From NCBI GenBank assembly GCA_031406795.1, contig JANOHV010000139.1, positions 1 through 21,991 on the forward strand: 21,991 nt of DNA, given 5' to 3'. The translations under genes were made by a program, and so were the position numbers. Below the pieces are notes generated by a model. The model saw only the letters and a list, made by a program, of their open reading frames with translations, was not told the origin of the DNA and ran no database searches. Shown one piece after another: positions 4,512 to 21,991 of this stretch. Each line of letters opens with the position of its first letter. The stretch's first letter is position 1. The stretch is from DATDCY01 sp031406795 [NCBI: Candidatus Rokuibacteriota bacterium]. GTDB taxonomy: Bacteria; JAUVQV01.

Positions 4512-4554
4512 GGAAGCGGAACTGTTCCCGTAGTCGCGCGAAGTCTTCGCGTTA
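4512..4554 (+). repeat. 43-bp dispersed repeat, copy 1
   Basis: This stretch differs from 7614-7656 at only 5 of 43 positions by eye. In the frame that reads into the HIT fragment both copies translate as EAEL(F/L)P, a TAG stop, then a short run. Both are followed closely by pieces of a HIT-family gene, so they probably descend from one ancestral cassette. Confidence 0.6.
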
Positions 4555-4587
4555 GATTATTCGACGATCATTTGCATCGGCCGGCAG

Positions 4588-4641
4588 CGCTTCGCGCCCG
4601 ACGGCTTCAACATCGGCATCAACGTCGGCCAGGCCGTCACT
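4588..4641 (+). pseudogene. HIT-family hydrolase fragment (internal piece)
   Basis: Eighteen codons read RFAPDGFNIGINVGQAVT, matching the conserved core strand of HIT (histidine triad) nucleotide hydrolases (typically PDGFNIGINVG followed by HLHxHxxP). The histidine triad itself is absent here, and no start or ribosome site precedes it. In-frame residues extend upstream to about 4534 without clear HIT character. It is a gene remnant. The other parts of a HIT gene occur at 7673-7806, also behind a copy of the 43-bp repeat. Confidence 0.55.
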
Positions 4642-4714
4642 ATGTTCAACCTCAAGCCGGGACGCTCATCTCCTGTATCATCACTGCCATACACAATGCC
4701 CAGAGGGGGGTGCC

Positions 4715-5365
4715 ATGAGCCATGGAGTGCCGATCGTTCGCGTCGAGGTCTTCAGCGACTACACCTGACCGTGGTGCCTCATCGGGGCGGTCCGCCTCGA
4801 GAAGGCCCGTGCCGGGCTCGCCGGCCGGATCGAGCTTGCGATCGCCTGGCGCCCTTTCGAGATCCACCCGGAGGTGCCGACGGCGGGGATGCCGCTCTCG
4901 GCCCTCGGCTACGACCCCGACGACCTCGCGACGGCAATGGCGAGACTGCGCCGCCAAGCCGCCGACGAGGGGATCGAGTTTGCTCCCCGCTCGCCCGAGT
5001 CTCTCCTCGCCAACACGCACCGCGCCCTCGCGGCAAGCGCGATCGTCCAGGAGGCTGATCCGGGGCGCTTCGAGGCGTTCCATCACGCGCTCTTCCACGC
5101 GGGCTTCGGCCAGTTGCAGAATATCGGAGACGCGTCCGTCCTGCACAGGATCGCCGCCGAAGTGGGGCTCGACGCCCCACGCCTCGACGCTGCCCTCGCC
5201 GCCGGCGTCGGAGAGGCCGCCCTGCGCAAGGCGACGGAGGACGCACACCGGCGAAAGATCACCGCTGTCCCGGCGTTCGTCTTCGGTGGCAAGGAGGTCA
5301 TTGTCGGCGCTTACCCGTCGGAGGCGCTCCGGCAGGCAGCGGAGCGGGCCACCGCACCCGGCTGA
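4715..5365 (+). CDS. DsbA/FrnE-family thiol oxidoreductase, probable selenoprotein (UPWC active site)
   Basis: Read through one TGA, this is a complete 216-residue DsbA-family protein of the FrnE type. Residues 8-17 are VRVEVFSDYT. Codon 18 is TGA (4766-4768), followed by PWCLIG. Family members have CPWC here, so the TGA replaces exactly the first, nucleophilic cysteine. The rest is intact: WRPFEIHPEVP, the helical insert (about residues 60-160), and ITAVPAFVFGGKEVIVGAYP with the cis-proline at P186. There is no other stop in 217 codons. AGAGGGGGG stands 4 nt before the ATG at 4715. Inference: selenocysteine is inserted, supported by the hairpin at 4776-4806. The alternative is a nonsense mutant, plausible because neighbouring accessory DNA holds many pseudogenes. 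No signal peptide is seen, so it is probably cytoplasmic, as FrnE-like proteins often are. Confidence 0.72.
4776..4806 (+). promoter_or_regulatory. Candidate bacterial SECIS hairpin
   Basis: Immediately downstream of the in-frame TGA, GCCT (4776-4779) pairs with AGGC (4803-4806). A 2x2 internal loop follows, then a 7-bp upper stem (TCGGGGC 4782-4788 with GCCTCGA 4794-4800, one G-T pair). The apical loop is GGTCC (4789-4793). The loop begins 20 nt after the TGA. Bacterial SECIS elements need a short stem-loop in this range with a G at the loop start. In E. coli fdhF the SelB-contacted loop also contains GGUC, at positions 22-25 counted from the U of UGA. Here the same four bases lie at 24-27. 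Confidence 0.6.
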
Positions 5366-5454: not shown

Positions 5455-5852
5455 GGGCTTGTCAAACCGTCGAGGCGAGGACGCGCGACTCAGTGGGACC
5501 CGTAAAGGGGAGCAGGCGCACATCCCGGGCCCCGGCACCAGCGAGCATCGCCGAAAGCTCGGAAAGCGAGTACGAACGCCCCTCGGCGGTGCCGGCAAGC
5601 ATGTTGAGACTGAAAAGTGCGGGGAAAACCGGGCTCGTCCTGGAGTCGTCGAGGATGAACTCGTGCACGAGGAGCAGCCCGCCGGGCTCGAGCGCCCGCG
5701 CCGCCTTGCCGATGATCGCACGGCACATCGAAGGGCCTTCGCCGTGCAGGATGTGCGACAGCCACGCAACATCGAAGCCGCCGGGGAGTTCATCCGCGGT
5801 GAAGTCGCCCCCCGTGAAGGAGACCCGGTCGCCGATGCCGGCCGCGCCGACG
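5455..5852. repeat. Direct repeat, left copy (3' part of methyltransferase gene)
   Basis: Aligns without gaps to 21594-21991 at an offset of 16139, with about 16 mismatches in 397 bases by eye. The right copy continues beyond the window, so the real repeat is longer. Same orientation, so recombination between copies could delete or duplicate the 16-kb block between them. Confidence 0.85.
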
Positions 5853-6481
5853 ATGCGCTCGGCGAACGGTTTCGATGTCGGCAGATCGAAGATTGTCGCG
5901 GTCAGGCCGGGATTGGCGAGCGCGAACTGGACGGCCCACGTGCCGGGGCCGCCGCCGAGGTCCAGCAGGCGGCGGCGTCCGCCGAGATCGATCTCCCGCG
6001 CCGCCCGCGCCGCCGTCCCGAGGGAGTTGCCGTGCATGCCCATCAGGAAGTCCTCGATCTCCGAGGCGTCCCCGTGGCTGGCGCGGCCGCGCACCGGCCC
6101 GCCGGCAAGTGCCGCCTCGTGGAGCCGGTTCCAGGAGGGGACGAGGTTGGCGTGATGGCGGACCATGAACCCGATGTAGTTCGCCGATCCCCGCACGAGG
6201 TAGGTCAGGGCGGATGGGGAATTGGCGAAGCCCGCGTCCGTCCTGTCCAGCAGCCCGAGCGCGGTCAGCGCTTCGAGGAGTGTCGTCACGCCACGCTCGT
6301 CGCCCCCGACCCGTTGCGCAATCTCCGCCCCGTCGAGGCGCGCCTCGCCGATGACGGTGAAGATGTCGAGCCGGACGCCGGCGTGCAACGTAAGGCTCTT
6401 CCAGTACGCGCCGGACATCCCGAGGATTTCCCCCGGGCCCTTTGCTGGCTTTCGTTCTTCCATGACGGGTAGATTCTTCAT
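5462..6481 (-). CDS. SAM-dependent O-methyltransferase (AcsOMT/COMT-like)
   Basis: A 339-residue class I methyltransferase of the plant-COMT / bacterial antibiotic O-methyltransferase type. The N-terminal part (about residues 20-100, AYWKSLTLHAGVRLDIF and the winged-helix dimerisation segment LLEALTALGLLDR) is followed by the SAM site LLDLGGGPGTWAVQFA (residues 172-187). Then come TIFDLP, the GDFTADELPGGFD motif and SHILHGEGP. Acceptor substrate unknown. The ATG at 6481 (MKNLPVMEER) is a choice between it and the ATG at 6463, and neither has a strong ribosome site. The reading frame continues upstream to 6766, but that part overlaps the vapB-type gene and is not protein-like. A near-identical copy starts at the right window edge. 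Confidence 0.85.
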   Translation of the reverse strand: MKNLPVMEERKPAKGPGEILGMSGAYWKSLTLHAGVRLDIFTVIGEARLDGAEIAQRVGGDERGVTTLLEALTALGLLDRTDAGFANSPSALTYLVRGSANYIGFMVRHHANLVPSWNRLHEAALAGGPVRGRASHGDASEIEDFLMGMHGNSLGTAARAAREIDLGGRRRLLDLGGGPGTWAVQFALANPGLTATIFDLPTSKPFAERIVGAAGIGDRVSFTGGDFTADELPGGFDVAWLSHILHGEGPSMCRAIIGKAARALEPGGLLLVHEFILDDSRTSPVFPALFSLNMLAGTAEGRSYSLSELSAMLAGAGARDVRLLPFTGPTESRVLASTV

Positions 6482-6526
6482 CGTCTGGGGACGGGTGTCA
6501 ACGCCCGCCCGGCACACAGAAGCTCC

Positions 6527-6564
6527 TTGACACAGAAGCGCGCACGTCTTACCCTGATGTAAGA
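6527..6564 (+). promoter_or_regulatory. Promoter and candidate operator of an AbrB/PIN module
   Basis: TTGACA (6527-6532) is followed after 17 bp by a weak TACCCT (6550-6555). An inverted repeat TCTTAC (6547-6552) / GTAAGA (6559-6564) covers that -10 region, which is where antitoxin autorepressors of this type usually bind. Confidence 0.45.
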
Positions 6565-6578
6565 AAGTGAGGTGCCGC

Positions 6579-6806
6579 ATGTCCACGGTTACCATGTCGT
6601 CGAAGGGCCAGATCGCCATTCCAGCGAAGATTCGCCGAGAGCTGCATCTCGAGCGCACTTCCCGCCTCGAGGTCTGCGTCGAGCGGGACCGTCTGGTGCT
6701 CACACCCATTCGCGAGGAGTCATGGCGCGAGTTGCGTGGAAGCCACCGCGGGACGCGTTTGACCACATGGATCGAGGAGGAACATCAGCGGGAGCGCGAA
6801 CGTTGA
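6579..6806 (+). CDS. AbrB/SpoVT-type antitoxin (VapB-like)
   Basis: A 75-residue swapped-hairpin AbrB DNA-binding protein: TVTMSSKGQIAIPAKIRREL (about residues 3-22), then RLEVCVERDRLVLTPI. A basic and acidic C-terminal tail (WIEEEHQRERER) would wrap the cognate toxin. The ATG at 6579 has GAGG about 7 nt upstream. A GTG at 6567 is also in frame but less likely. Its stop overlaps the start of the adjoining PIN toxin gene, the usual vapBC coupling. That toxin carries an amber codon, so the antitoxin may now be without an active partner. Confidence 0.88.
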   Translation: MSTVTMSSKGQIAIPAKIRRELHLERTSRLEVCVERDRLVLTPIREESWRELRGSHRGTRLTTWIEEEHQRERER

Positions 6807-7225
6807 AGCGGTAGGTCTTCGATTCGTGGGCCCTCCTTGCCTGGCTTGGAGGTGAGGAGCCGGCTGACGCCGAGGTGCAGTCCCTGCTCGATGCCGCGGC
6901 GGCAGGACGTGCCGAATTGTGGATGAGCATCATCAATCTCGGCGAGGTCTACTACGCAACGGCAAGGAAATCGGGGATCGAGAAGGCCCGCGAGGACCGC
7001 AAGAGTTTAATGCAGTCTCCCATCCGCTTCGTCGAAGTGGATGACGATCTGGTCTGGGAGGCGGCGGAAATCAAAGCGGCCCATGCTTTGGCCTACGCCG
7101 ATGCCTTCGCAGCGGCGTTGACCGTGAGGTTGAAGGCCGTCCTGGTCACCGGCGATCCCGAATTTGACGTCCTTGCAAAGAGTCGTCTGATCGCTGTGAA
7201 GAGACTCGCTCGCCTGGCGAGATGA
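6803..7225 (+). pseudogene. PIN-domain toxin (VapC-like) interrupted by TAG at codon 4
   Basis: VapC toxins are PIN-fold ribonucleases. The frame from TTG 6803 reads L-K-R-stop-VFDSWALLAWLGGEE. The TAG at 6812-6814 replaces the residue (usually Tyr) before the VFDSWALLA strand that holds the first catalytic Asp. Beyond it the frame is open to 7225 with SIINLGEVYYATARKSG (catalytic Glu) and AYADAFAAAL (catalytic Asp). Thus one base change separates it from a full-length toxin. The first in-frame start codon after the stop is GTG 6875, which would lose the first catalytic Asp. The toxin is therefore probably inactive unless the amber codon is suppressed. The segment 6878-7028 is repeated at 21299-21449. 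Confidence 0.75.
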
Positions 7226-7672: not shown

Positions 7673-7806
7673 ATGAGAACGCCCGTCAGCACGGACTGCC
7701 CGTTCTGCCAACCCGCCCGCGAGCGCATTCACGCTACGACGGCGACGTGCCCGACCCGCGCGGCGGCGTGCGCTGGGTGATCCCCACCAAGGGGAATTAC
7801 CTGTCG
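7673..7806 (+). pseudogene. HIT-family gene remnant with internal deletion
   Basis: From ATG 7673, MRTPVSTDCPFCQPARERIH matches the N-terminus of HIT hydrolases (the CPFC zinc-knuckle pair). After a frame change near 7730, RYDGDVPDPRGGVRWVIPTK and GNYL match the C-terminus of the same family. The middle, including the histidine triad, is gone (I estimate about 90 residues). The C-terminal part is in frame with the PLD-helicase coding region that follows, so HIT and helicase may once have been adjacent or fused. Confidence 0.65.
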
Positions 7807-10265
7807 CCCCCTTCGACCAGCTCAGGACGAACGGTTACGCCTGAGGCCTCCGCCGCCGAATCGCCCTCCCCCGACCGCTCCCGCCTCATCTCCGGCGGCG
7901 CCGACGACCCGCTGCTGCATTGTCTCAGCGAGGAGTTCACCCGCGCCGACCAGGTCGATATCGCCGTCGGCTTCGTGATGCCCAGCGGCGTCCACCGCAT
8001 CGAGACGCACCTCCGCGACTTCCTCGAGCGCGGCGGCCGTCTGCGCCTGCTGACCGGCGACTACCTCGGCGTCACTGACCCCGACGCACTTGTCCGCCTG
8101 CTCGACCTCGAGGGCGACCGCCAACTCCGGGTGTTCGAAACGGGAAGCAGGTGTCCCGTCGCCTTCCACCCCAAAGCCTACGTCTTCATGCGCGCCGGCG
8201 GCGACGGCGTGGCCTTCGTCGGCAGCTCCAACCTCTCCGAGTCGGCGCTCCTGACCGGCATCGAATGGAGCTACCGCACGGTCTCCTCGACGGACGCCCC
8301 TGCCTTCGCCGGTATCACCCAGGTCTTCGAGAGCCTCTTCCAGCACCCGTCCGCGCGGGAGCTGACGGCCGCGTGGGTCGACAGCTACCGCCAGCGCAGG
8401 AAGATCGCCCCCCGGCCGGAGACCGCGGCCCCGCCCGTCGATGTCGAACTCGAACCGCAGGCAGTCATCCCGCCGCACGCGGTCCAGCTCGAAGCGCTCG
8501 CCGCGCTGGAGAAAACCCGCGCCGACGGAAACACCGCCGGGCTCGTCGTCCTCGCGACCGGCCTCGGCAAGACCTGGCTCAGCGCCTTCGACTCGAACCG
8601 CCCCGAGTATCGCCGGATCCTCTTCGTCGCCCACCGCCCACCTCGAGCGCTTCAGTCGCGACGCCTTCGACTACATCGTCGTCGACGAGTTCCACCACGC
8701 GGCCGCCGCGACCTATCGGCGCCTCATCGACTGGTTCCGCCCCAGGTTCCTCCTCGGCCTCACTGCCACGCCGGAGCGCACCGACGGGGGCGACCTGCTC
8801 GCGCTCTGCCAGGAGAACCTCGCCTACCGCTGCGACCTGGTCGAGGGCGTCCGGCGAGACCTGCTCAAGCCTCGGACCCTGTTCGGCCTGCCGCCGGGGG
8901 AACAGGCTGTTCTCGACCTGCTGGAGAGGGCGCGCGGCGGCCCCATCGAGATCGCCCCCGGGTGCTTCGTAACGTACGAGCTGGAGACCATCGACATCCT
9001 CGGCGGGCTGGTCCGGCCGCCGACCACGGACGCCCTGCGGCGCTACTACGAGGACTTCGTCGAACTGCACGGCCTGCGCCCGCGGCTATCGAGGCCTTCC
9101 ACGACGGCTACACCCCGCGCGCGATGCGGCCCCGGCACGGATCCTGGCTCGGCTTCATCGCCTCGATGCCTGCTAATACCGCTTCCCCGGCGAGATCGGG
9201 ATCGAGCAACTCGGCGACGCCGTCGCGCATCTGGCATCCCGGAACCACCTGTTGCGCGACGATCTCGGACCCAGAGTCGACCAGACGGACGGCCTGCGGC
9301 GGCTCCTCGAGGAGAATCCCATCGCCGCCTGGGTCGGCGGCAGTGGCACGGGAGGCACACCGTACTTCGCGTATGAAGGGGGCGTCTTCAGATCTAAGCT
9401 CCCGACTGAGCCGGCGGAAAGGACGGCATTCCAGGAGCTGACTCGCGAGATCGTCGACTGGCGGCTCGCCAATTACCTTCAGCGGCACGAGCGCCAACCC
9501 GACGACGAAGTCGGATTCGTCTGCAAAGTATCGCATTCGGGCGGCAAGCCGATCCTCCGCCTCCCCGACCGCGAGAGCCACCCAGACCTGCCGTCCGGTC
9601 CGACGCCCCTCGAGATCGACGGGATTCCCTTCGACGCGGACTTCGTCAAGGTCGCCCTCAACGTCGTCCGCCAGCCGGACAACGCGCAGAATCAGCTGCC
9701 CGGCATCCTGCGGGGATGGTTCGGTCCCGAGGCCGGATTGCCCGGGACCAGGCATGAGGTACGGTTGGAGAAGACGGAGGCGGGATGGAGGATGAAACCA
9801 CTCGGGCGGCGGGAGGGCCAACTGCAAATCTGGCGGCGATATTCGCGCGAGGAGATTCCGAAACTCTTCGGGTTCCCCTTCTCCGTGGCTGTTTGGAACG
9901 TCGGCTTCGTCGCCAGTTTCCAGGGGCATCTGTTTTTGTTGGTCACCGTGGATAAGAGTGGCAAGGGCACAGATTTCCAATATCTCGATCGTTTTCTCTC
10001 ACCTGATGTTTTTGAATGGAAGAGCCAGAATCGCACGACGCAGGCAAGCAACCACGGTCAACTCATCAGAGATCACAAAGTCCGCGGAGTTGCTGTTCAC
10101 CTGTTCATCCGAAAGAGCGGCAAGATTCCAGGCGGTGGGGCCTCCCCCTTCCTTTACTGCGGCAACGTGGCGTTCACTGACTGGGAAGGCGAAACGCCGA
10201 TTACCGTCCACTGGCGGCTGCCGGAGGCGGTGCCGGAACGGCTACGGGCAGAACTCGGGATTTGA
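7807..10265 (+). pseudogene. PLD / SF2 helicase / DUF3427 protein gene, decayed
   Basis: The intact family joins a phospholipase-D-like domain, a DEAD/DEAH (SF2) helicase and a C-terminal DUF3427 domain. Here the PLD part is in frame 1 (about 7900-8420, HPKAYVF and GSSNLSESALLTG), followed by the Walker A segment VLATGLGKTW and motif Ia FVAHR (8626). The frame then shifts and motif II VVDEFHHAA and motif III LGLTATPERTDGG appear in frame 2. It returns to frame 1 near 9080 (IEAFHDGYTPRAM), and from about 9180 frame 3 runs to TGA 10265. The last part includes DUF3427 (FEWKSQNRTTQASNHGQLIR, SPFLYCGNVAFTDWEGE). Helicase motifs IV-VI are absent between 8880 and 9000, so a deletion is likely. At least three frame breaks make a working protein improbable. 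Confidence 0.8.
7808..7834. repeat. REP-like palindromic element
   Basis: The core TTCGACCAGCTCAGGACGAA has the form of the widespread REP sequence that translates as PELVEG on one strand and STSSGRT on the other. Arms TTCG/CGAA enclose it. Only one element is seen. It lies in the linker between the HIT remnant and the PLD domain and is read in frame. Confidence 0.55.
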
Positions 10266-11341: not shown

Positions 11342-11704
11342 CTACATCCCTTTGTCACCGGGAGCTTGCGGGACGAGTGGCTCGAGCATCTTGATCAACT
11401 CGGCAATGCGCTCGGTGGCAACGCGCCAGAGGAGTTCGTGCTTGATCTCGCCATATTCATGAACCAGCACATTTCTCTGATTGATGACCTTGCGCCAGGG
11501 GATCTCCGGATGGCTCGACTGGAATCCCGCGGAAACCTTGTTCGCCGCTTCACCGATGATCTCGACATGGCGCTCGACAGCGCCGCGCAACAGCCTGCTC
11601 TTCAGGTAGTCGTGTAGTGTCTTGCCGGCAACAAACTCGCTGATGGCCCGCGCCGCGTCGAGCATGTCCCAGAGGTAAGCGGCGTCCGCTTTTTCAGGCT
11701 GCAT
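11342..11704 (-). CDS. hepT: HEPN-domain toxin HepT (DUF86)
   Basis: A 120-residue all-helical HEPN ribonuclease-type toxin, the partner of an MNT nucleotidyltransferase. The catalytic RX4HXY motif is R77-NVLV-H82-E-Y84. It lies in IPWRKVINQRNVLVHEYGEI, flanked by the conserved helices AVERHVEIIGEAANKVS and ELLWRVATERIAELIKMLEP. The ATG at 11704 overlaps the end of mntA by 11 nt; a GTG at 11716 is also in frame. Known biology: MntA-type antitoxins AMPylate the tyrosine of RX4HXY and so silence HepT. All the needed residues are present, so the module looks functional. Confidence 0.92.
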   Translation of the reverse strand: MQPEKADAAYLWDMLDAARAISEFVAGKTLHDYLKSRLLRGAVERHVEIIGEAANKVSAGFQSSHPEIPWRKVINQRNVLVHEYGEIKHELLWRVATERIAELIKMLEPLVPQAPGDKGM

Positions 11705-12008
11705 AGAGGATTTCACGATGGTTGAGGATCTCGTGCCGCCTGAAGGGATTGCGCAGACCCGACTTATCGACGAGGTCGATATCGCGGCCGAAGATTCCGC
11801 GAAGCTCCTCGATCATCTCGGTCCACTCGTAGAGACTCCATGGGGCGTCCGGGGCGAGGTCAACGAGGATGTCCACATCGCTGTCAGGGGTGAAATCGCC
11901 GCGCAGGATGGAGCCAAAGAGGGAGAACTCGACGATCTGCCACTTGCGGCAGAATGCGGCGATCACCTCGGCAGGAGGGACTACTGGTGCGCTCGTGACT
12001 GGGACCAT
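11694..12008 (-). CDS. mntA: MNT-domain nucleotidyltransferase antitoxin MntA
   Basis: A 104-residue minimal nucleotidyltransferase of the MntA type. The signature GSX10DXD is complete: G32-S33, then D44-V45-D46, within LFGSILRGDFTPDSDVDILV. Residues SLYEWTEMIEELRGIFGRDI and LVDKSGL complete the fold. It is the first gene of the pair and is coupled to hepT by an 11-nt overlap, the common MNT-HEPN order. I took the ATG at 12008; the frame also continues to a TTG at 12026. The region upstream (12009-12128) contains no gene. Confidence 0.92.
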   Translation of the reverse strand: MVPVTSAPVVPPAEVIAAFCRKWQIVEFSLFGSILRGDFTPDSDVDILVDLAPDAPWSLYEWTEMIEELRGIFGRDIDLVDKSGLRNPFRRHEILNHREILYAA

Positions 12009-15485: not shown

Positions 15486-15716
15486 ATGGCCATCGTCACT
15501 GCCACCCCCAAGGGACAGATCGTCATTCCGGCGCCGATCCGGGCGAAATTCGGCATCACCGGCGGCTCCCGCGTGGAGGTCCGTGAGGAGGGGGGCAAGA
15601 TCATTGTCGTCCCGCTCCTCGCGGATCCTGTTCGTCAGGCCCGCGGCATCTTCAAGGGCGGTGACTCGGCACTCAAGGCCCTCGCGAAATTGCGCAGGGA
15701 GAAGGCCGGACGGTGA
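15486..15716 (+). CDS. vapB: AbrB-type antitoxin of an intact VapBC pair
   Basis: A 76-residue AbrB/SpoVT protein. MAIVTATPKGQIVIPAPIRA, then KFGITGGSRVEVREEGGKII, forms the DNA-binding swapped hairpin. The tail DPVRQARGIFKGGDSALKAL ending LRREKAGR is the toxin-binding part. The ATG at 15486 has a near-consensus AGGAGGT 5 nt upstream. Its TGA overlaps the toxin's GTG by 4 nt (GTGA), so the two are translationally coupled. It presumably represses its own AT-rich promoter region. Confidence 0.92.
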   Translation: MAIVTATPKGQIVIPAPIRAKFGITGGSRVEVREEGGKIIVVPLLADPVRQARGIFKGGDSALKALAKLRREKAGR

Positions 15717-16120
15717 GCGGCGTCTTCGTTCTCGACAGCTTCGCCCTGCTGGCCTACTTCGAGGATGAGGCCGGAGCGGAACGCGTCCAGTACATCCTCG
15801 CGCAAGCCGAGAAGGGCCGTACCTCGCTCGCCATGAGCCTCATCAACTGGGGAGAGGTACTCTACGCTCTGCAGCGATCCCGTGGAGAGACCGGCCGGAA
15901 CGCAGCGATCAGCGTCATCGATCAGCTTCCCATCTCCCTGATCGCCCCCGACCGTGCGCAGACCATGGCAGCGGCCGGACTGAAGGCCCGGCACCCTATC
16001 GCCTATGCCGATTGTTTCGCTGCCGCCCTGGCCATCACCCGCAAGGCCCGGCTGGTTACCGGCCATCCCGAATTCCGGCGTCTGGAAAAAAACATCTCTA
16101 TCGACTGGCTCGCCCAGTAG
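15713..16120 (+). CDS. vapC: PIN-domain ribonuclease toxin of the intact VapBC pair
   Basis: A 135-residue PIN-fold protein, a metal-dependent ribonuclease toxin (known VapC targets include tRNA and rRNA). Catalytic acids are in place: D8 in FVLDSFALLAYF, E48 in SLINWGEVLYAL and D100 in HPIAYADCFAAALA, followed by RLVTGHPEFRRLEK. It starts with GTG 15713 inside the antitoxin stop. It belongs to the same subfamily as the amber-interrupted toxin at 6803, so it shows what that gene looked like before decay. Confidence 0.93.
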   Translation: MSGVFVLDSFALLAYFEDEAGAERVQYILAQAEKGRTSLAMSLINWGEVLYALQRSRGETGRNAAISVIDQLPISLIAPDRAQTMAAAGLKARHPIAYADCFAAALAITRKARLVTGHPEFRRLEKNISIDWLAQ

Positions 16121-16351: not shown

Positions 16352-16389
16352 TTCGAACCTGCGGCCTACGGATCAGGAGTCCAGCGCTG

Positions 16390-17349
16390 CTACGACAGCT
16401 CTTTCAAGGAATAGCTGGCGCTGCGGCCGCCGGCGGGGTCTTTTGTCAAGATGCCGCGCTTTACGAGATCAAGGATGTCGCGGAGTGCAGTGTCCTGCGA
16501 GCACTTCGCTATCCTGGCCCATTTTGAAGAGGTCAGCTTGCCGTCGAAACCGTCGAGCAGCTGATTGAGGAGTAAGCGTTGCCGCTCATTGAACGGGAAA
16601 CTTTGAGAAGATTCCCAAAAACGGGCCTTTCTGAGTACGGCCGCAAGCGTACTCTCCGCTCGGTCGAGCGCACGGTCGAGGCAGGCCAGGAACCACTTCA
16701 ACCGCTCCGTGATATCCAGCGTTCCCTTCTGTGTCTTTTCCAGGCCGCCATAGTAGGCGTCCCGTTCGACGCGTATTTGCGCGGACATGCTGTAGAAGCG
16801 TTGGGGGCTCCCCTCGGATCGGGCCAGCATCGTGTCGGCAAGCGCGCGTGCGATACGGCCGTTGCCGTCATCCAAAGGATGGATGGTGACAAACCAAAGA
16901 TGGGCGATGCCGGCACGCAGTACGAGGTCCGTCCCATCTTCGCGGTTGAACCAGTCCAGGAAGGCGGTCATCTCCTGCTCGAGCCGTGCGGCGGCAGGCG
17001 CTTCGAAATGCACCCGTTCGCGGCCGACGGGTCCGGATACGACCTGCATCGGCCCTCTGGCGTCGTCGCGCCAGGCGCCGACATTGCTTTTACGCAGGCC
17101 GCTGTACCCTGCCGGAAATAAAGAGGCGTGCCAGCCGAGCAGTCTTTCCCTGGTGAGCGGCTTCTCATAATTTTGCGTGGCGTCAAGCATCATCCCGACA
17201 ACACCGTCGACGTTTCTGTCGCCAGGCGCCAAGGCCCCGACATCGACGCCAAGACGTCGGGCCACGGATGAACGGACCTGATCCCTGTCGAGCGCCTCCC
17301 CTTCGATCTCGCTGGATTTCAAGACGTCGAGGGTCAGCGTTTGAAGCAC
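16390..17349 (-). CDS. Fic-domain protein, N-terminally truncated duplicate
   Basis: A 319-residue frame equivalent to residues 51-369 of the Fic protein at 19428-20537, with only scattered substitutions. The catalytic loop is HPLDDGNGRIAR; the usual HPF is HPL here. The inhibitory SSEIEG motif is kept just inside the new N-terminus. Similarity stops sharply near 17353, so the first 50 residues (most of DUF4172) are lost. The only start is an internal GTG (17349) without a ribosome site. It may be a pseudogene or a shortened, possibly deregulated Fic. The 3' ends of both copies and of the fragment at 5376 align. Confidence 0.75.
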   Translation of the reverse strand: MLQTLTLDVLKSSEIEGEALDRDQVRSSVARRLGVDVGALAPGDRNVDGVVGMMLDATQNYEKPLTRERLLGWHASLFPAGYSGLRKSNVGAWRDDARGPMQVVSGPVGRERVHFEAPAAARLEQEMTAFLDWFNREDGTDLVLRAGIAHLWFVTIHPLDDGNGRIARALADTMLARSEGSPQRFYSMSAQIRVERDAYYGGLEKTQKGTLDITERLKWFLACLDRALDRAESTLAAVLRKARFWESSQSFPFNERQRLLLNQLLDGFDGKLTSSKWARIAKCSQDTALRDILDLVKRGILTKDPAGGRSASYSLKELS

Positions 17350-18486: not shown

Positions 18487-18906
18487 ATGAGCAGTGCGGT
18501 GAAGAGCATCCGGGTTGATCCAGAGACGGCGTCCGACATCGAACGACTTTCGGCAGGGCAGCGCACCACCTTTTCAGCGCTGGCAGCCGAGATGCTCTGC
18601 GAAGCGACAAAGGCGCGGCGATGTCCCGGCGTCGTCTTCGCCGACGGACCCGCGGGGCGGCGGGCTCGGATCGAAGGAACCGGAATCGAGATCTGGGAGG
18701 TGATCTCCTCCTTCCTGACATTGGGCAAGGATGAGCGGAGGCTCCGCGAAGCGTACCACTGGCTTTCCGAGCGGCAGATCCTCGCCGCGCTCGGCTACGG
18801 TCGGACGTACCCTCGGGAGATTGAAGATCTTATTCGGCGAAACAACGCGCAGGACGGGGCCGGCCGAAATGACGAGCTTCCGTTTGCGCGCAGGCGCGCC
18901 AGGTGA
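18487..18906 (+). CDS. RHH + DUF433 antitoxin
   Basis: A 139-residue protein. Residues 1-43 (SIRVDPETASDIERLSAGQR, FSALAAEMLCEATK) look like a ribbon-helix-helix DNA-binding region. Residues 45-118 are DUF433-like (VVFADGPAGRRARIEGTGIE, LTLGKDERRLREAYHWLSER, QILAALGYGRTYPREIEDLI). DUF433 proteins pair with DUF5615 PIN-like proteins, and such a gene follows with a 4-nt overlap. AGGAG lies about 9 nt before the ATG at 18487. Confidence 0.88.
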   Translation: MSSAVKSIRVDPETASDIERLSAGQRTTFSALAAEMLCEATKARRCPGVVFADGPAGRRARIEGTGIEIWEVISSFLTLGKDERRLREAYHWLSERQILAALGYGRTYPREIEDLIRRNNAQDGAGRNDELPFARRRAR

Positions 18907-19268
18907 AGCTGCTCCTCGACGAGGATCTCAGTCCCAGGATCGCGCAGGCTCTTCGGAAGCTTGGCGTAGACGCAGTCAGCGTCCACGAAGTTGGCCGCCA
19001 GGGGCTTTCGGACCGTGAGCAGCTCGAATACGCGGCGTCCGAAAAGCGGTGCGTCGTCACCAGGAACCGCAACGATTACCTGATCCTCACCCGCGAATTG
19101 TTTGGCCGGAGCGAACCCCACGAGGGGGTCCTGGTGGTCTCCTCCGGACTTGCGCCCGACGACTTCGGACGCATTGCATCTGCCGTGAAGGAGTACGTTG
19201 ACCTCTACGGCGATCGCCCGGCGGCATTCCTGTTCGACTTCGTTTCCGACCCCGAACGACCCGCCTGA
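18903..19268 (+). CDS. DUF5615 PIN-like toxin
   Basis: A 121-residue DUF5615 protein (the PIN-like group related to Mut7-C). It opens MKLLLDEDLSPRIAQALRKL with the acidic cluster D6-E7-D8, followed by GVDAVSVHEVGRQGLSDREQ, RCVVTRNRNDYLILTRELFG and PHEGVLVVSSGL. The start is GTG 18903, inside the antitoxin stop. It is a probable toxin by its PIN-like fold and its partner; its target is unknown. Intact. Confidence 0.9.
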   Translation: MKLLLDEDLSPRIAQALRKLGVDAVSVHEVGRQGLSDREQLEYAASEKRCVVTRNRNDYLILTRELFGRSEPHEGVLVVSSGLAPDDFGRIASAVKEYVDLYGDRPAAFLFDFVSDPERPA

Positions 19269-19387: not shown

Positions 19388-19427
19388 AAGACCAGCACAT
19401 AAGGGAACAACCTGAATTGCCGCGCCG

Positions 19428-20537
19428 CTACGACAGTTCTTTCAACGAATAGCTGGCGCTGCGGCCGCCAGCGGGGTCTTTTATCAGGATGCCGCGCTTC
19501 ACGAGTTCAAGGATGTCACGTAGTGCAGTGTCCTGTGAGCACTTCGCTATCCTGGCCCATTTTGAAGAGGTCAGCTTGCCGTCAAACCCGTCGAGCAGCT
19601 TATTGAGGAGCAAGCGTTGCCGTTCATTGAACGGGACACTTTGAGAAGATTCCCAAAAACGGGCCCTCCTGAGTACGGCCGCAAGCGTACTCTCCGCGCC
19701 GTCGAGCGCACGGTCGAGGCAGGCCAGGAACCACTCCAGGCGCACGGTGATATCCAGCGTTCCCTTCTGTGTCTCCTCCAGGCCGCCATAGTAGGCGTCC
19801 CGTTCAACGCGTATTTGCGCGGACATGCTGTAGAAGCGTTGGGGGCTCCCCTCGGATCGGGCCAGCATCATGTCGGCAAGCGCGCGTGCGATACGGCCGT
19901 TGCCGTCATCAAAAGGATGGATGGTGACAAACCAAAGGTGGCCAATGCCGGCACGCAGTACGAGGTCCGTACCATCGTCGCGGTTGAACCAGTCCAAGAA
20001 GGCGGTGATTTCCTGCTCAAGCCGTGCGGCAGCAGGTGCTTCGAAATGCACCCGTTCGCGGCCGACAGGTCCTGATACGACCTGCATCGGCCCTTTGGCG
20101 TCGTCGCGCCAGGTGCCGACGTTGATTCTTCTCAGGCCGCTGTACCCTGTCGGAAATAAAGAGGCGTGCCAGCCGAGCAGTCTTTCTTTGGAGAGCGGCT
20201 TTTCATAATGTTGCGTGGCATCGAGCATCATCTCGACAACACCGTCGACGTTTCTGTCTCCAGGCGCCAAAGCCCCGACATCAACGCCAAGACGTCGGGC
20301 CACGGACGAACGGACCTGATCCCTGTCGAGCGCCTCCCCTTCGATCTCGCTGGATTTCAAGACGTCGAGTGTCAGCGTTTGAAGCACAGCCTCTGCGCGC
20401 AGAGAAAACCCCAGTGCCTGCATACGCCCAAGCAGATAACCCTGTTTGTGACGCACGTCAGCAAGCCGCTGCGCCAACGCCTGCATACTCCAGCGGAATC
20501 GAGGCCAATCCGGAAGTTCATGGATATACTTTGTCAT
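19428..20537 (-). CDS. Fic-domain protein with DUF4172 N-terminus, full-length copy
   Basis: A 369-residue class-II-type Fic protein, probably an AMP-transferase. DUF4172 begins MTKYIHELPDWPRFRWSMQA. The inhibitory helix carries S62-SEI-E66-G67. The catalytic loop is HPFDDGNGRIAR (H207-R218), fully canonical. The C-terminal region (LPFNERQ-like VPFNERQRLLLNKLLDGFDG, KWARIAKCSQDTALRDILEL) is a winged-helix-type segment. AGAGGT precedes the ATG at 20537 by 7 nt. The truncated copy at 16390 and the fragment at 5376 derive from the same gene family member. Its promoter shows repeated sites that may bind a regulator. Confidence 0.95.
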   Translation of the reverse strand: MTKYIHELPDWPRFRWSMQALAQRLADVRHKQGYLLGRMQALGFSLRAEAVLQTLTLDVLKSSEIEGEALDRDQVRSSVARRLGVDVGALAPGDRNVDGVVEMMLDATQHYEKPLSKERLLGWHASLFPTGYSGLRRINVGTWRDDAKGPMQVVSGPVGRERVHFEAPAAARLEQEITAFLDWFNRDDGTDLVLRAGIGHLWFVTIHPFDDGNGRIARALADMMLARSEGSPQRFYSMSAQIRVERDAYYGGLEETQKGTLDITVRLEWFLACLDRALDGAESTLAAVLRRARFWESSQSVPFNERQRLLLNKLLDGFDGKLTSSKWARIAKCSQDTALRDILELVKRGILIKDPAGGRSASYSLKELS

Positions 20538-20727: not shown

Positions 20728-20979
20728 ATGGCACAGGAAGAACTGTTAGATCGGATCACCGTGGACACGAAGATCTTCGGGGGAAAGCCTATTATTCGGG
20801 GGCGTCGTCTTGCCGTGGAGCACGTCGTGGAAATGCTTGCTGCCGGCGACACTCCGGAGACTATCCTCGAGGGTTATCCCTGGCTCGAGCGTGATGACAT
20901 TCGTGCCTGCCTGGCATACGCTCACCGACTCGTCGGACACGAGCGAATCGAGCCGCTCTCCCTCAAAGTCGGGGCGTGA
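20728..20979 (+). CDS. DUF433 antitoxin
   Basis: An 83-residue stand-alone DUF433 protein: RITVDTKIFGGKPIIRGRRL, AVEHVVEMLAAGDTPETILE, GYPWLERDDIRACLAYAHRL. This is the typical pattern (GGKPxIRGxRxxV, then YPxLxxxDIxAxLxYA). Unlike the one at 18487 it has no RHH extension. AAGGA lies 9 nt before the ATG at 20728, which I prefer over the ATG at 20719, where the same site is too close. Its end overlaps the next gene by 4 nt (GTGA). Confidence 0.9.
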   Translation: MAQEELLDRITVDTKIFGGKPIIRGRRLAVEHVVEMLAAGDTPETILEGYPWLERDDIRACLAYAHRLVGHERIEPLSLKVGA

Positions 20980-21347
20980 AGCTCCTCCTCGACACCTGCG
21001 TTTCGGGCGTAGCCCGGCATGCCCTTGAAGCGGCTGGTCATGATGTCATCTGGTCCGCCGATTGGGACAGGGATCCCGGGGATGAAGAAATCCTTTCGCG
21101 CTCTCACGCTGAGGGCAGGATCCTCGTCACCGTCGACAAGGACTTCGGTGAGCTGGCAATCGTCCGCGGATACCCGCACTCGGGGATTGTACGTCTGGTA
21201 GGACTCCGTTCGGGGCAGCAGGGTCCGGTCTGCGGGGAAGTTCTCGAACGATACGGTGCCGAGCTCCAGAAGGGCGCGGCTGACCCAAGACTCTCCTTGA
21301 CACCCTGCTGGATTCCGCGGAGGCGGGTCGTGTCGAATTGTGCATGA
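20976..21347 (+). CDS. DUF5615 PIN-like toxin with a foreign C-terminal tail
   Basis: The start is GTG 20976. Residues 1-99 are a normal DUF5615 domain: MKLLLDTCVSGVARHALEAA, HDVIWSADWDRDPGDEEILS, RILVTVDKDFGELAIVRGYP, GIVRLVGLRSGQQGPVCGEV. From about residue 100 (after ELQKGA) the family's usual ending is replaced by about 24 residues (ADPRLSLTPCWIPRRRVVSN) that read out of frame through a VapC fragment. So the toxin gene was joined to vapC debris near 21280-21300. The core residues remain, and activity is uncertain. Confidence 0.78.
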   Translation: MKLLLDTCVSGVARHALEAAGHDVIWSADWDRDPGDEEILSRSHAEGRILVTVDKDFGELAIVRGYPHSGIVRLVGLRSGQQGPVCGEVLERYGAELQKGAADPRLSLTPCWIPRRRVVSNCA

Positions 21348-21593: not shown

Positions 21594-21991
21594 GGGCTTG
21601 CTAAACCGTCGCGGCGAGGACGCGCGACTCAGTGGGGCCCGTGAAGGGGAGCAGGCGCACGTCCCGGGCCCCGGCCCCGGCGAGCATCGCCGAAAGCTCG
21701 GAGAGCGAGTACGAACGCCCCTCGGCGGTGCCGGCAAGCATGTTGAGACTGAAAAGTGCCGGGAAAACCGGGCTCGTCCTGGAGTCGTCGAGGATGAACT
21801 CGTGCACGAGGAGCAGCCCGCCGGGCTCGAGCGCCCGCGCCGCCTTGCCGACGATCGCGCGGCACATCGAAGGGCCTTCGCCGTGCAGGATGTGCGAAAG
21901 CCACGCAACGTCGAAGCCGCCGGGGAGTTCGTCCACGGTGAAGTCGCCCCCCGTGAAGGAGACCCGGTCGCCGATGCCGGCCGCGCCGACG
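21594..21991. repeat. Direct repeat, right copy
   Basis: Partner of 5455-5852 in the same orientation. Similarity begins at the GGGCTTG just outside the stop codon and runs to the window edge without gaps. Confidence 0.85.
21601..21991 (-). CDS. O-methyltransferase, second copy (5' end outside window)
   Basis: The C-terminal 129 residues of a protein almost identical to the methyltransferase at 5462-6481: DELPGGFDVAWLSHILHGEG, AARALEPGGLLLVHEFILDD, GRSYSLSELSAMLAGAGARD. The stop is TAG here and TGA in the left copy. The frame is open to the window edge. Differences are few and mostly silent (for example ATV for STV at the end), so both copies are probably under protein-level constraint or recently duplicated. 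Confidence 0.85.
   Translation of the reverse strand, partial: VGAAGIGDRVSFTGGDFTVDELPGGFDVAWLSHILHGEGPSMCRAIVGKAARALEPGGLLLVHEFILDDSRTSPVFPALFSLNMLAGTAEGRSYSLSELSAMLAGAGARDVRLLPFTGPTESRVLAATV

What the first reader, a model, noticed from the sequence alone, without database searches (positions are those of the whole stretch)
4715..5365. Probable selenoprotein: FrnE/DsbA-like oxidoreductase with UPWC instead of CPWC
Seen: a full-length 217-codon frame with a good ribosome site and one internal TGA, at codon 18, followed by PWCLIG. Known: FrnE-type DsbA proteins have CPWC there, and UxxC redox proteins are a recurrent class of bacterial selenoproteins. Inference: the TGA encodes selenocysteine at the nucleophilic position. 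A random nonsense change is unlikely to fall on the one catalytic Cys codon while sparing every other codon. The caveat is that pseudogenes are common in the DNA just to the right.
Basis: partly seen in the sequence, partly recalled or inferred. Interest (0 to 1): 0.88.

Follow-up and report, generated by a model that had tools for sequence, protein, structure and literature searches.

The report
Selenocysteine form of a FrnE-type oxidoreductase
A gene for a common disulfide-handling enzyme has a UGA stop codon exactly where its relatives have their catalytic cysteine, followed by an RNA hairpin of the kind that tells bacteria to insert selenocysteine there, so it is most likely a genuine selenoprotein of an already known kind.

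Summary
Frame 4715-5365 encodes a full-length FrnE-type DsbA protein (PF01323) with one in-frame TGA, codon 18 (4766-4768), in place of the catalytic Cys of CPWC.
(1) In 395 genomes of the relatives' phylum (Gemmatimonadota), 15 listed homologues carry a TGA: 5 at or beside their own end, 1 elsewhere inside, 9 on this same Cys.
(2) Those 9 mostly share a 7-bp, 5-nt-loop hairpin at one codon register, with compensatory changes. The window pairs 7/7 there (loop GGUCC), as do 6 of the 9; of 38 Cys homologues, 0 do.
(3) The nearest relatives (52% identity or less, all Cys) come from genomes with selenocysteine machinery.
Against: no genome is held for the window, so its own sel genes are untested; the nearest relatives have Cys; the gene is more diverged than they are; broken genes lie nearby; there are no reads.
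UXXC DsbA-like (COG2761) selenoproteins were published in 2005, so this is a new member of a known kind. The mildly new part: it nests in a Cys-only branch, suggesting a separate Cys-to-Sec switch.

The parts
4702..4709 (+). putative Shine-Dalgarno (AGAGGGGG), 5 nt before the ATG
   Evidence: read from sequence
4715..5365 (+). FrnE-type DsbA oxidoreductase gene, 216 codons plus TGA stop, with in-frame TGA at codon 18
   Evidence: PF01323 E 7.9e-36; FrnE 5cnw E 1.6e-26; fold match to D. radiodurans FrnE, TM 0.84
4766..4768 (+). TGA, proposed selenocysteine codon (U18 of U-P-W-C)
   Evidence: aligned with the catalytic Cys of all 13 loci and with the TGA of 9 phylum homologues
4775..4777 (+). 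resolving Cys codon TGC (Cys21 of UPWC)
4782..4800 (+). proposed bacterial SECIS upper stem-loop: 4782-4788 pairs with 4794-4800, loop GGTCC 4789-4793, 20 nt between UGA and loop
5363..5365 (+). true stop, also TGA (so TGA is ordinarily a stop here)

Best explanation
The gene is a selenoprotein: a FrnE-type, DsbA-family thiol-disulfide oxidoreductase in which UGA at codon 18 is decoded as selenocysteine. Shown: the intact frame, the UGA at the nucleophilic position, the in-register hairpin shared with most UGA homologues, and Sec machinery in relatives. Inferred: SelB with Sec-tRNA(Sec) binds the hairpin whose loop starts 20 nt after the UGA and inserts Sec, giving a U18-P-W-C21 active site at the start of the first helix opposite the cis-proline loop. 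Sec18 would be the attacking residue and Cys21 the resolving one in reduction or exchange of substrate disulfides, probably in the cytoplasm (no signal peptide seen by eye; no predictor was run). The gene most likely arose by a Cys-to-Sec switch separate from the main Sec branch of the family in Gemmatimonadota.
For: Frame and domain: (pLDDT 92.5). TGA on the catalytic Cys: about 1 in 46 of single-base nonsense routes, taken as equally likely. Phylum homologues: 15 listed hits with a TGA, all 15 fetched: 9 on the catalytic Cys (UPWC or UPFC), 1 internal elsewhere (L060), 5 at or beside their own end. Hairpin: RNAalifold of 8 TGA homologues without the window gives one 7-bp stem, columns 17-23/29-35, 5 of 7 pairs with compensatory changes. 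The window has 7/7 pairs there with a G-U loop; of 9 TGA homologues 6 have 7/7 (two of these near-copies); of 38 distinct Cys homologues 0 have 7/7 and 1 has 6/7. With the window included, 85.7% of cells pair, against 28.6-52.4% when slid. A 7/7 stem with NG[GU] loop occurs at 4 of 51,084 codon positions of GC3-rich frames. The criteria of the published bacterial SECIS model (PMC13188914 section 5) are met. Relatives decode Sec: tRNA-Sec at 62-79 bits in 12 of 13 nearest genomes, at 61-75 bits in 8 of 9 genomes with an active-site TGA, in 147 of 200 of the phylum; selB in 22 of 24 and selA in 20 of 24 genomes searched.
Against: No genome of the window is held, so its sel genes are untested, and its phylum is unsettled: a 490-aa neighbour has no match in 200 genomes of the phylum. 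All 13 loci, and the three further near ones L018, L020 and L027, have Cys. The window sits in a 17-row clade with 16 Cys rows (98/91), so the Sec state is not shared with a close relative that I can see. Leaving codon 18 out, the protein keeps 69 of 98 clade-conserved columns, against 75 of 88, 81 of 87 and 77 of 86 for three basal Cys rows, as relaxed constraint would also give. The generic SECIS criteria are weak: 20 of 38 Cys homologues pass, 12 in the stricter form, and 61% of synonymous recodings pass the stricter form. Even the 7/7 stem arises in 5.8% of recodings of the window's own residues. Three of 9 TGA homologues lack the 7/7 stem, and one measure (further pair types) does not exceed its shuffles (234 of 500 as high). 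tRNA-Sec in 8 of 9 TGA genomes is little above the phylum's 147 of 200; of the 6 genomes whose TGA lies elsewhere, 3 also have a match over the cut-off, one of them only 52 bits.
Confidence: 0.86

Rival explanations
1. Recent pseudogene: a TGC-to-TGA nonsense change killed an ordinary CPWC FrnE gene and no other damage has accumulated yet.
For: Nearest relatives all have Cys; long branch 0.76 and loss of conserved residues; broken and duplicated genes lie to the right.
Against: Needs a roughly 1-in-46 hit on the catalytic codon and a chance 7/7 SECIS-like stem in the register used by the TGA homologues (0 of 38 Cys homologues, 5.8% of recodings). No other stop or shift in 216 codons.
Confidence: 0.08
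2. Sequencing or assembly error: the true codon is TGC and the protein is an ordinary FrnE.
For: No reads available; the window has repeated segments that can mislead an assembler, although none of the repeats of 60 nt or more found there overlaps this gene.
Against: A single C-to-A error on exactly this codon together with a matching SECIS-like stem is improbable; no frameshift in the gene.
Confidence: 0.04
3. TGA is a sense codon for another residue throughout this organism (variant genetic code).
For: In-frame TGA in an otherwise open gene.
Against: The same gene ends at TGA 5363-5365, close to where homologues end, and the neighbouring 2709-3389 gene ends on TGA as well. Trp or Gly at this site would abolish the CXXC chemistry.
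Confidence: 0.01

Closest known systems
DsbA-like selenoproteins with UXXC (COG2761 in the Sargasso Sea set; 'DsbA-like protein form 1', PF01323, in the 2026 review)
   Same: Same Pfam family and Sec at the first position of UXXC. PMC1088965 (passages) gives 9 sequences, COG2761; PMC13188914 (passages) lists form 1 with PF01323 and UxxC. That these two are the same set is my inference: the review's reference 59 was not looked up. PMC1794560 (passages) lists DsbA-like selenoproteins for Anaeromyxobacter dehalogenans and others, without a COG in the passages seen.
   Different: I could not compare sequences with those records. The window lies in a Cys-only branch of the family rather than with the TGA homologues that I found.
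FrnE of Deinococcus radiodurans (DR_0659; PDB 5cnw, 5co3)
   Same: Best solved relative by sequence (E 1.6e-26) and by fold (TM 0.84); CP(W/F)C active site; FrnE proteins are described as predicted cytoplasmic thiol oxidoreductases of the DsbA family (PMC8945050, passages).
   Different: Uses Cys, and has a C-terminal CXXXXC that the window protein lacks: its only Cys is residue 21.
Gemmatimonadota UPWC/UPFC FrnE-like proteins found here (L048, L050, L052-L057, L059)
   Same: TGA at the same codon; 6 of 9 have the same 7/7 hairpin; host tRNA-Sec in 8 of 9.
   Different: 28-37% identical to the window protein for the eight aligned (L057, a near-copy of L056, is not in that list); the tree puts six of them in one other clade, and holding the window with those six is rejected at p-AU 0.025.
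CPWC FrnE-like proteins of Gemmatimonadota (L001-L013, L018, L020, L027)
   Same: Nearest by sequence (41-52%), same clade (98/91), from genomes with Sec machinery.
   Different: TGC or TGT in place of TGA, and no 7/7 hairpin.

Membership tests
Sec-containing DsbA-like (PF01323 UXXC) selenoproteins | DsbA thioredoxin domain (PF01323) | tested here: met
   124.1 bits, cut-off 25.6
Sec-containing DsbA-like (PF01323 UXXC) selenoproteins | in-frame UGA at the position of the catalytic Cys, followed by xxC | tested here: met
Sec-containing DsbA-like (PF01323 UXXC) selenoproteins | bacterial SECIS hairpin downstream of the UGA (3-9 nt loop, 4-16 bp upper stem, G in first two loop positions, 16-37 nt spacing, MFE at most -7.5) | tested here: met
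   criteria: stem 7 bp, loop GGUCC, spacing 20, MFE -26.0 over 47 nt. The generic criteria alone are weakly selective (20 of 38 Cys homologues pass).
Sec-containing DsbA-like (PF01323 UXXC) selenoproteins | homologues in which UGA and Cys exchange at this position | tested here: met
   9 homologues with TGA, the nearer ones with TGC or TGT
Sec-containing DsbA-like (PF01323 UXXC) selenoproteins | host encodes selA, selB, selC, selD | not testable with these tools
   no genome held for the window; relatives have selA, selB and tRNA-Sec; selD was not searched
Sec-containing DsbA-like (PF01323 UXXC) selenoproteins | Sec shown in the protein (75Se label or mass spectrometry) | not testable with these tools
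   needs an experiment
FrnE subfamily of DsbA | best sequence and fold match to FrnE, CP(W/F)C-type site, cis-Pro loop | tested here: met
   (P186 invariant in 18 rows); first residue of the site is TGA here
FrnE subfamily of DsbA | C-terminal CXXXXC as in D. radiodurans FrnE (present in many, not all) | tested here: not met
   no Cys codon other than 21; PMC8945050 (passages) says some FrnE proteins lack it, so it does not exclude membership
Pseudogene | further stops or frameshifts | tested here: not met
   one TGA only in 216 codons

The most novel reading that the evidence does not exclude
A separate, fairly recent Cys-to-Sec switch in an otherwise Cys-only branch of FrnE proteins, in which the coding sequence acquired a SECIS hairpin in exactly the codon register already used by the distant Sec branch of the same family, a case of convergent SECIS placement. 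The alternative inside this reading is that the branch's ancestor was Sec and all sampled relatives went back to Cys.
Probability: 0.55. Interest if true: 0.45.

Novelty: new member of a known kind. Interest (0 to 1): 0.4.

Why it matters
An ordinary gene caller would end this protein at codon 17 or start it at the GTG at 4874 (the open frame listed), so it would be annotated as a fragment. If real, it adds a Sec/Cys pair within one clade, useful for asking what a Sec-for-Cys change buys a FrnE oxidoreductase and how a SECIS hairpin is fitted into coding sequence. It also shows that UPWC/UPFC FrnE-like proteins recur in Gemmatimonadota (9 among the hits), where 147 of 200 genomes examined carry tRNA-Sec.

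Tried and rejected
Placing the window's host: MscL matches Gemmatimonadota at up to 69%, but the 490-aa neighbour has no match in 200 genomes of that phylum (an empty answer without a positive control). Of the 18 other window genes tried against the loci held, only MscL matched, and only loci fetched with MscL itself. I found no way to reach other phyla with the handles I had, so the host stays unsettled.

Closer relatives: searches of the order of G001 (43 genomes), of G352 (117) and of G064 (117) gave nothing above 52% identity. Viral contigs gave no relative. In plasmid records the 15 listed of 148 matches are at 34% or less, and all 148 are under 60%.

Generic SECIS criteria as evidence: rejected as too permissive and replaced by the fixed-register test. 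The idea that the window's A-V residues at the loop (where the Cys clade mostly has W-A) show SECIS pressure on the protein is not supported statistically: the window disagrees at 3 of 9 conserved columns inside codons 19-31 and at 26 of 89 elsewhere, about the same rate.

tRNA-Sec cut-off: it is not clean, since 5 of 14 control genomes pass it (2 of 14 with the stricter filters). I therefore give the bit scores; the 52-bit match of G260 may be false.

Rows dropped: from the 38 Cys rows, homologues without a [CU]P[WF][CS] motif (L040, L044, L062) and duplicate sequences. L057 was left out because it repeats L056 there; it is counted. L060 and L062 were left out of the tree, and L059 also out of the AU test. 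The group in the AU test was named after a first tree had been seen. One search used 14 Cys rows of the clade. One further hit with a TGA, in G367, was not examined. The hit lists name only the better matches, so 15 TGA hits is the number listed.

Another selenoprotein in the window: none stood out in a scan for TGA between two coding-like stretches; that scan's filter also misses the TGA of this gene, so it shows little.

Full report
What is there. Searches confirm an ATG at 4715 behind AGAGGGGG, a frame of 216 codons ending at TGA 5363-5365, and one internal TGA at codon 18 (4766-4768), followed by PWCLIG. Read with a residue at the TGA, the product is a complete DSBA-domain protein (PF01323, E 7.9e-36). 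Its nearest solved relative is FrnE of Deinococcus radiodurans, by sequence (E 1.6e-26) and by fold (TM 0.84; model pLDDT 92.5).

Chance. The only internal stop sits on the catalytic Cys of CPWC. The frame offers 45 other single-base routes to a stop at 40 other codons, 8 of them to TGA, so a blind nonsense change would pick this codon about once in 46 times if all routes are equally likely.

Relatives. A pattern scan of the species-genome collection found 13 related loci, 41-51% identical, all 13 with TGC or TGT at this codon. Twelve of the 13 titles name Gemmatimonadota lineages; the 13th (L001, 'uncultured bacterium') belongs to the same phylum, since genomes of eight of the others came up in the search of its phylum. 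Searching 395 genomes of that phylum gave matches in 208. Fifteen listed hits carry a TGA, and all 15 were fetched. Five have it at or beside their own end. One (L060) has it elsewhere inside. Nine have it on the catalytic Cys, as UPWC or UPFC (L048, L050, L052-L057, L059; L056 and L057 are near-copies). A second search of the same 395 genomes with one of these as query listed one further TGA hit, in G367, which was not examined.

Machinery. tRNA-Sec is over the Rfam cut-off, at 62-79 bits, in 12 of the 13 nearest genomes; at 61-75 bits in 8 of the 9 genomes with an active-site TGA; and in 147 of 200 genomes of the phylum. The last figure means that 8 of 9 is no strong enrichment, and 3 of the 6 genomes whose TGA lies elsewhere also have a match over the cut-off (one at 52 bits). 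The cut-off itself is passed by 5 of 14 control genomes and by 2 of 14 (E. coli and M. jannaschii) under the stricter filters. In a set of 24 (the 13 nearest, G064, G352 and the 9 TGA genomes) selB is over cut-off in 22 and selA in 20 (controls over cut-off 2 and 1 of 14). G352 shows selA and selB but no tRNA-Sec; G051 shows selB only. The window's own genome is not held, so this is evidence about kin, not about the host.

SECIS. The 50 nt from the UGA fold at -26.5 kcal/mol, z -2.48, with 5 of 200 shuffles as good. The published bacterial model (PMC13188914, section 5 read) is met: 7-bp stem 4782-4788/4794-4800, loop GGUCC, 20 nt between UGA and loop. But that model is permissive: 20 of 38 Cys homologues also pass it, 12 of 38 in a stricter form, and so do 86% and 61% of synonymous recodings. 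The telling test is positional. Eight TGA homologues folded together without the window give one 7-bp stem at columns 17-23/29-35, with 5 of 7 pairs showing compensatory changes. At that codon register the window pairs 7/7 with a G-U loop, 6 of 9 TGA homologues pair 7/7, and 0 of 38 Cys homologues do (one reaches 6/7). With the window included, 85.7% of cells pair, against 28.6-52.4% when slid by 1-3 columns; the covariation score is 0.540 against a shuffled mean of 0.257, none of 500 as high, while the count of further pair types does not exceed its shuffles (234 of 500). Across 51,084 codon positions of GC3-rich frames, 60 have a 7/7 stem and 4 also an NG[GU] loop. The most cautious null, recoding the window's own residues, gives 7/7 in 5.8% of 20,000 cases.

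Descent. In a 49-row tree the window falls in a clade of 17 rows, the other 16 with Cys (98/91); the TGA state needs four changes on the tree. Holding the window with six TGA rows is rejected at p-AU 0.025, with the caveat that the group was named after the tree was seen. So the window's Sec is either a separate switch from Cys or a leftover of an older Sec state; the base of the clade is unresolved. PMC1794560 (passages) states that in most families with rare selenoproteins and widespread Cys homologues the selenoproteins evolved from Cys forms, in organisms that already decoded Sec.

Against the reading. Leaving codon 18 out, the window protein keeps 69 of 98 clade-conserved columns where three basal Cys rows keep 75 of 88, 81 of 87 and 77 of 86. 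That fits a distant host, but also relaxed constraint. The neighbourhood holds a helicase gene split over frames (7747-10265) and repeated segments. No read data exist here.

Known kind. DsbA-like COG2761 selenoproteins with UXXC were reported from the Sargasso Sea (9 sequences, PMC1088965, passages), and 'DsbA-like protein form 1', PF01323, UxxC, stands in the 2026 review table (PMC13188914, passages; that both mean the same set is my inference). A full-text search for 'selenoprotein' with 'COG2761' found only the 2005 paper; one for 'selenoprotein' with 'DsbA-like' and 'UxxC' found five; one for at least three of 'selenoprotein', 'DsbA', 'FrnE', 'UGA' found 21, 20 listed; one for 'selenocysteine' with 'Gemmatimonad' found 19, 15 listed, none of whose titles is about selenoproteins of this phylum (passages read in one of them). 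That is not proof that none exists. I therefore file this as a new member of a known kind.

Noticed in passing
window 5455-5754 and 21594-21893: A 300-nt repeat, 96% identical, within an O-methyltransferase gene (5462-6766 minus, PF00891) and a second copy that runs off the window end. It begins 90 nt after the dsbA-like gene.
   Followed up: partly
window 16384-16683 and 19422-19721: Two similar genes in direct repeat (93% identical over 300 nt); the right one is a DUF4172-Fic protein of 369 aa, the left one (319 aa, not scanned) lacks its start.
   Followed up: partly
window 7747-10265: PLD/ResIII/DUF3427 helicase-nuclease gene spread over different frames, apparently broken.
   Followed up: partly
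window 4534-4713: Short stretch that by eye resembles a HIT-hydrolase remnant (recalled motif); no Pfam match.
   Followed up: no
window 6567-7225, 11342-11716, 15713-16120, 18903-19268, 20976-21347: Run of toxin-antitoxin-like genes: MazE/PIN, HepT-like, PIN, two DUF5615.
   Followed up: no
L018 (G352 homologue): Cys homologue, 50-51% identical to the window protein, whose loop (CGGGA) and residues YIGSGR resemble the YLSAGR of some Sec forms although its stem pairs only 4/7; possibly a Sec-to-Cys revertant.
   Followed up: no
L060 (G117): FrnE-like gene with intact CPWC but an internal TGA elsewhere, probably a broken gene or an error.
   Followed up: no
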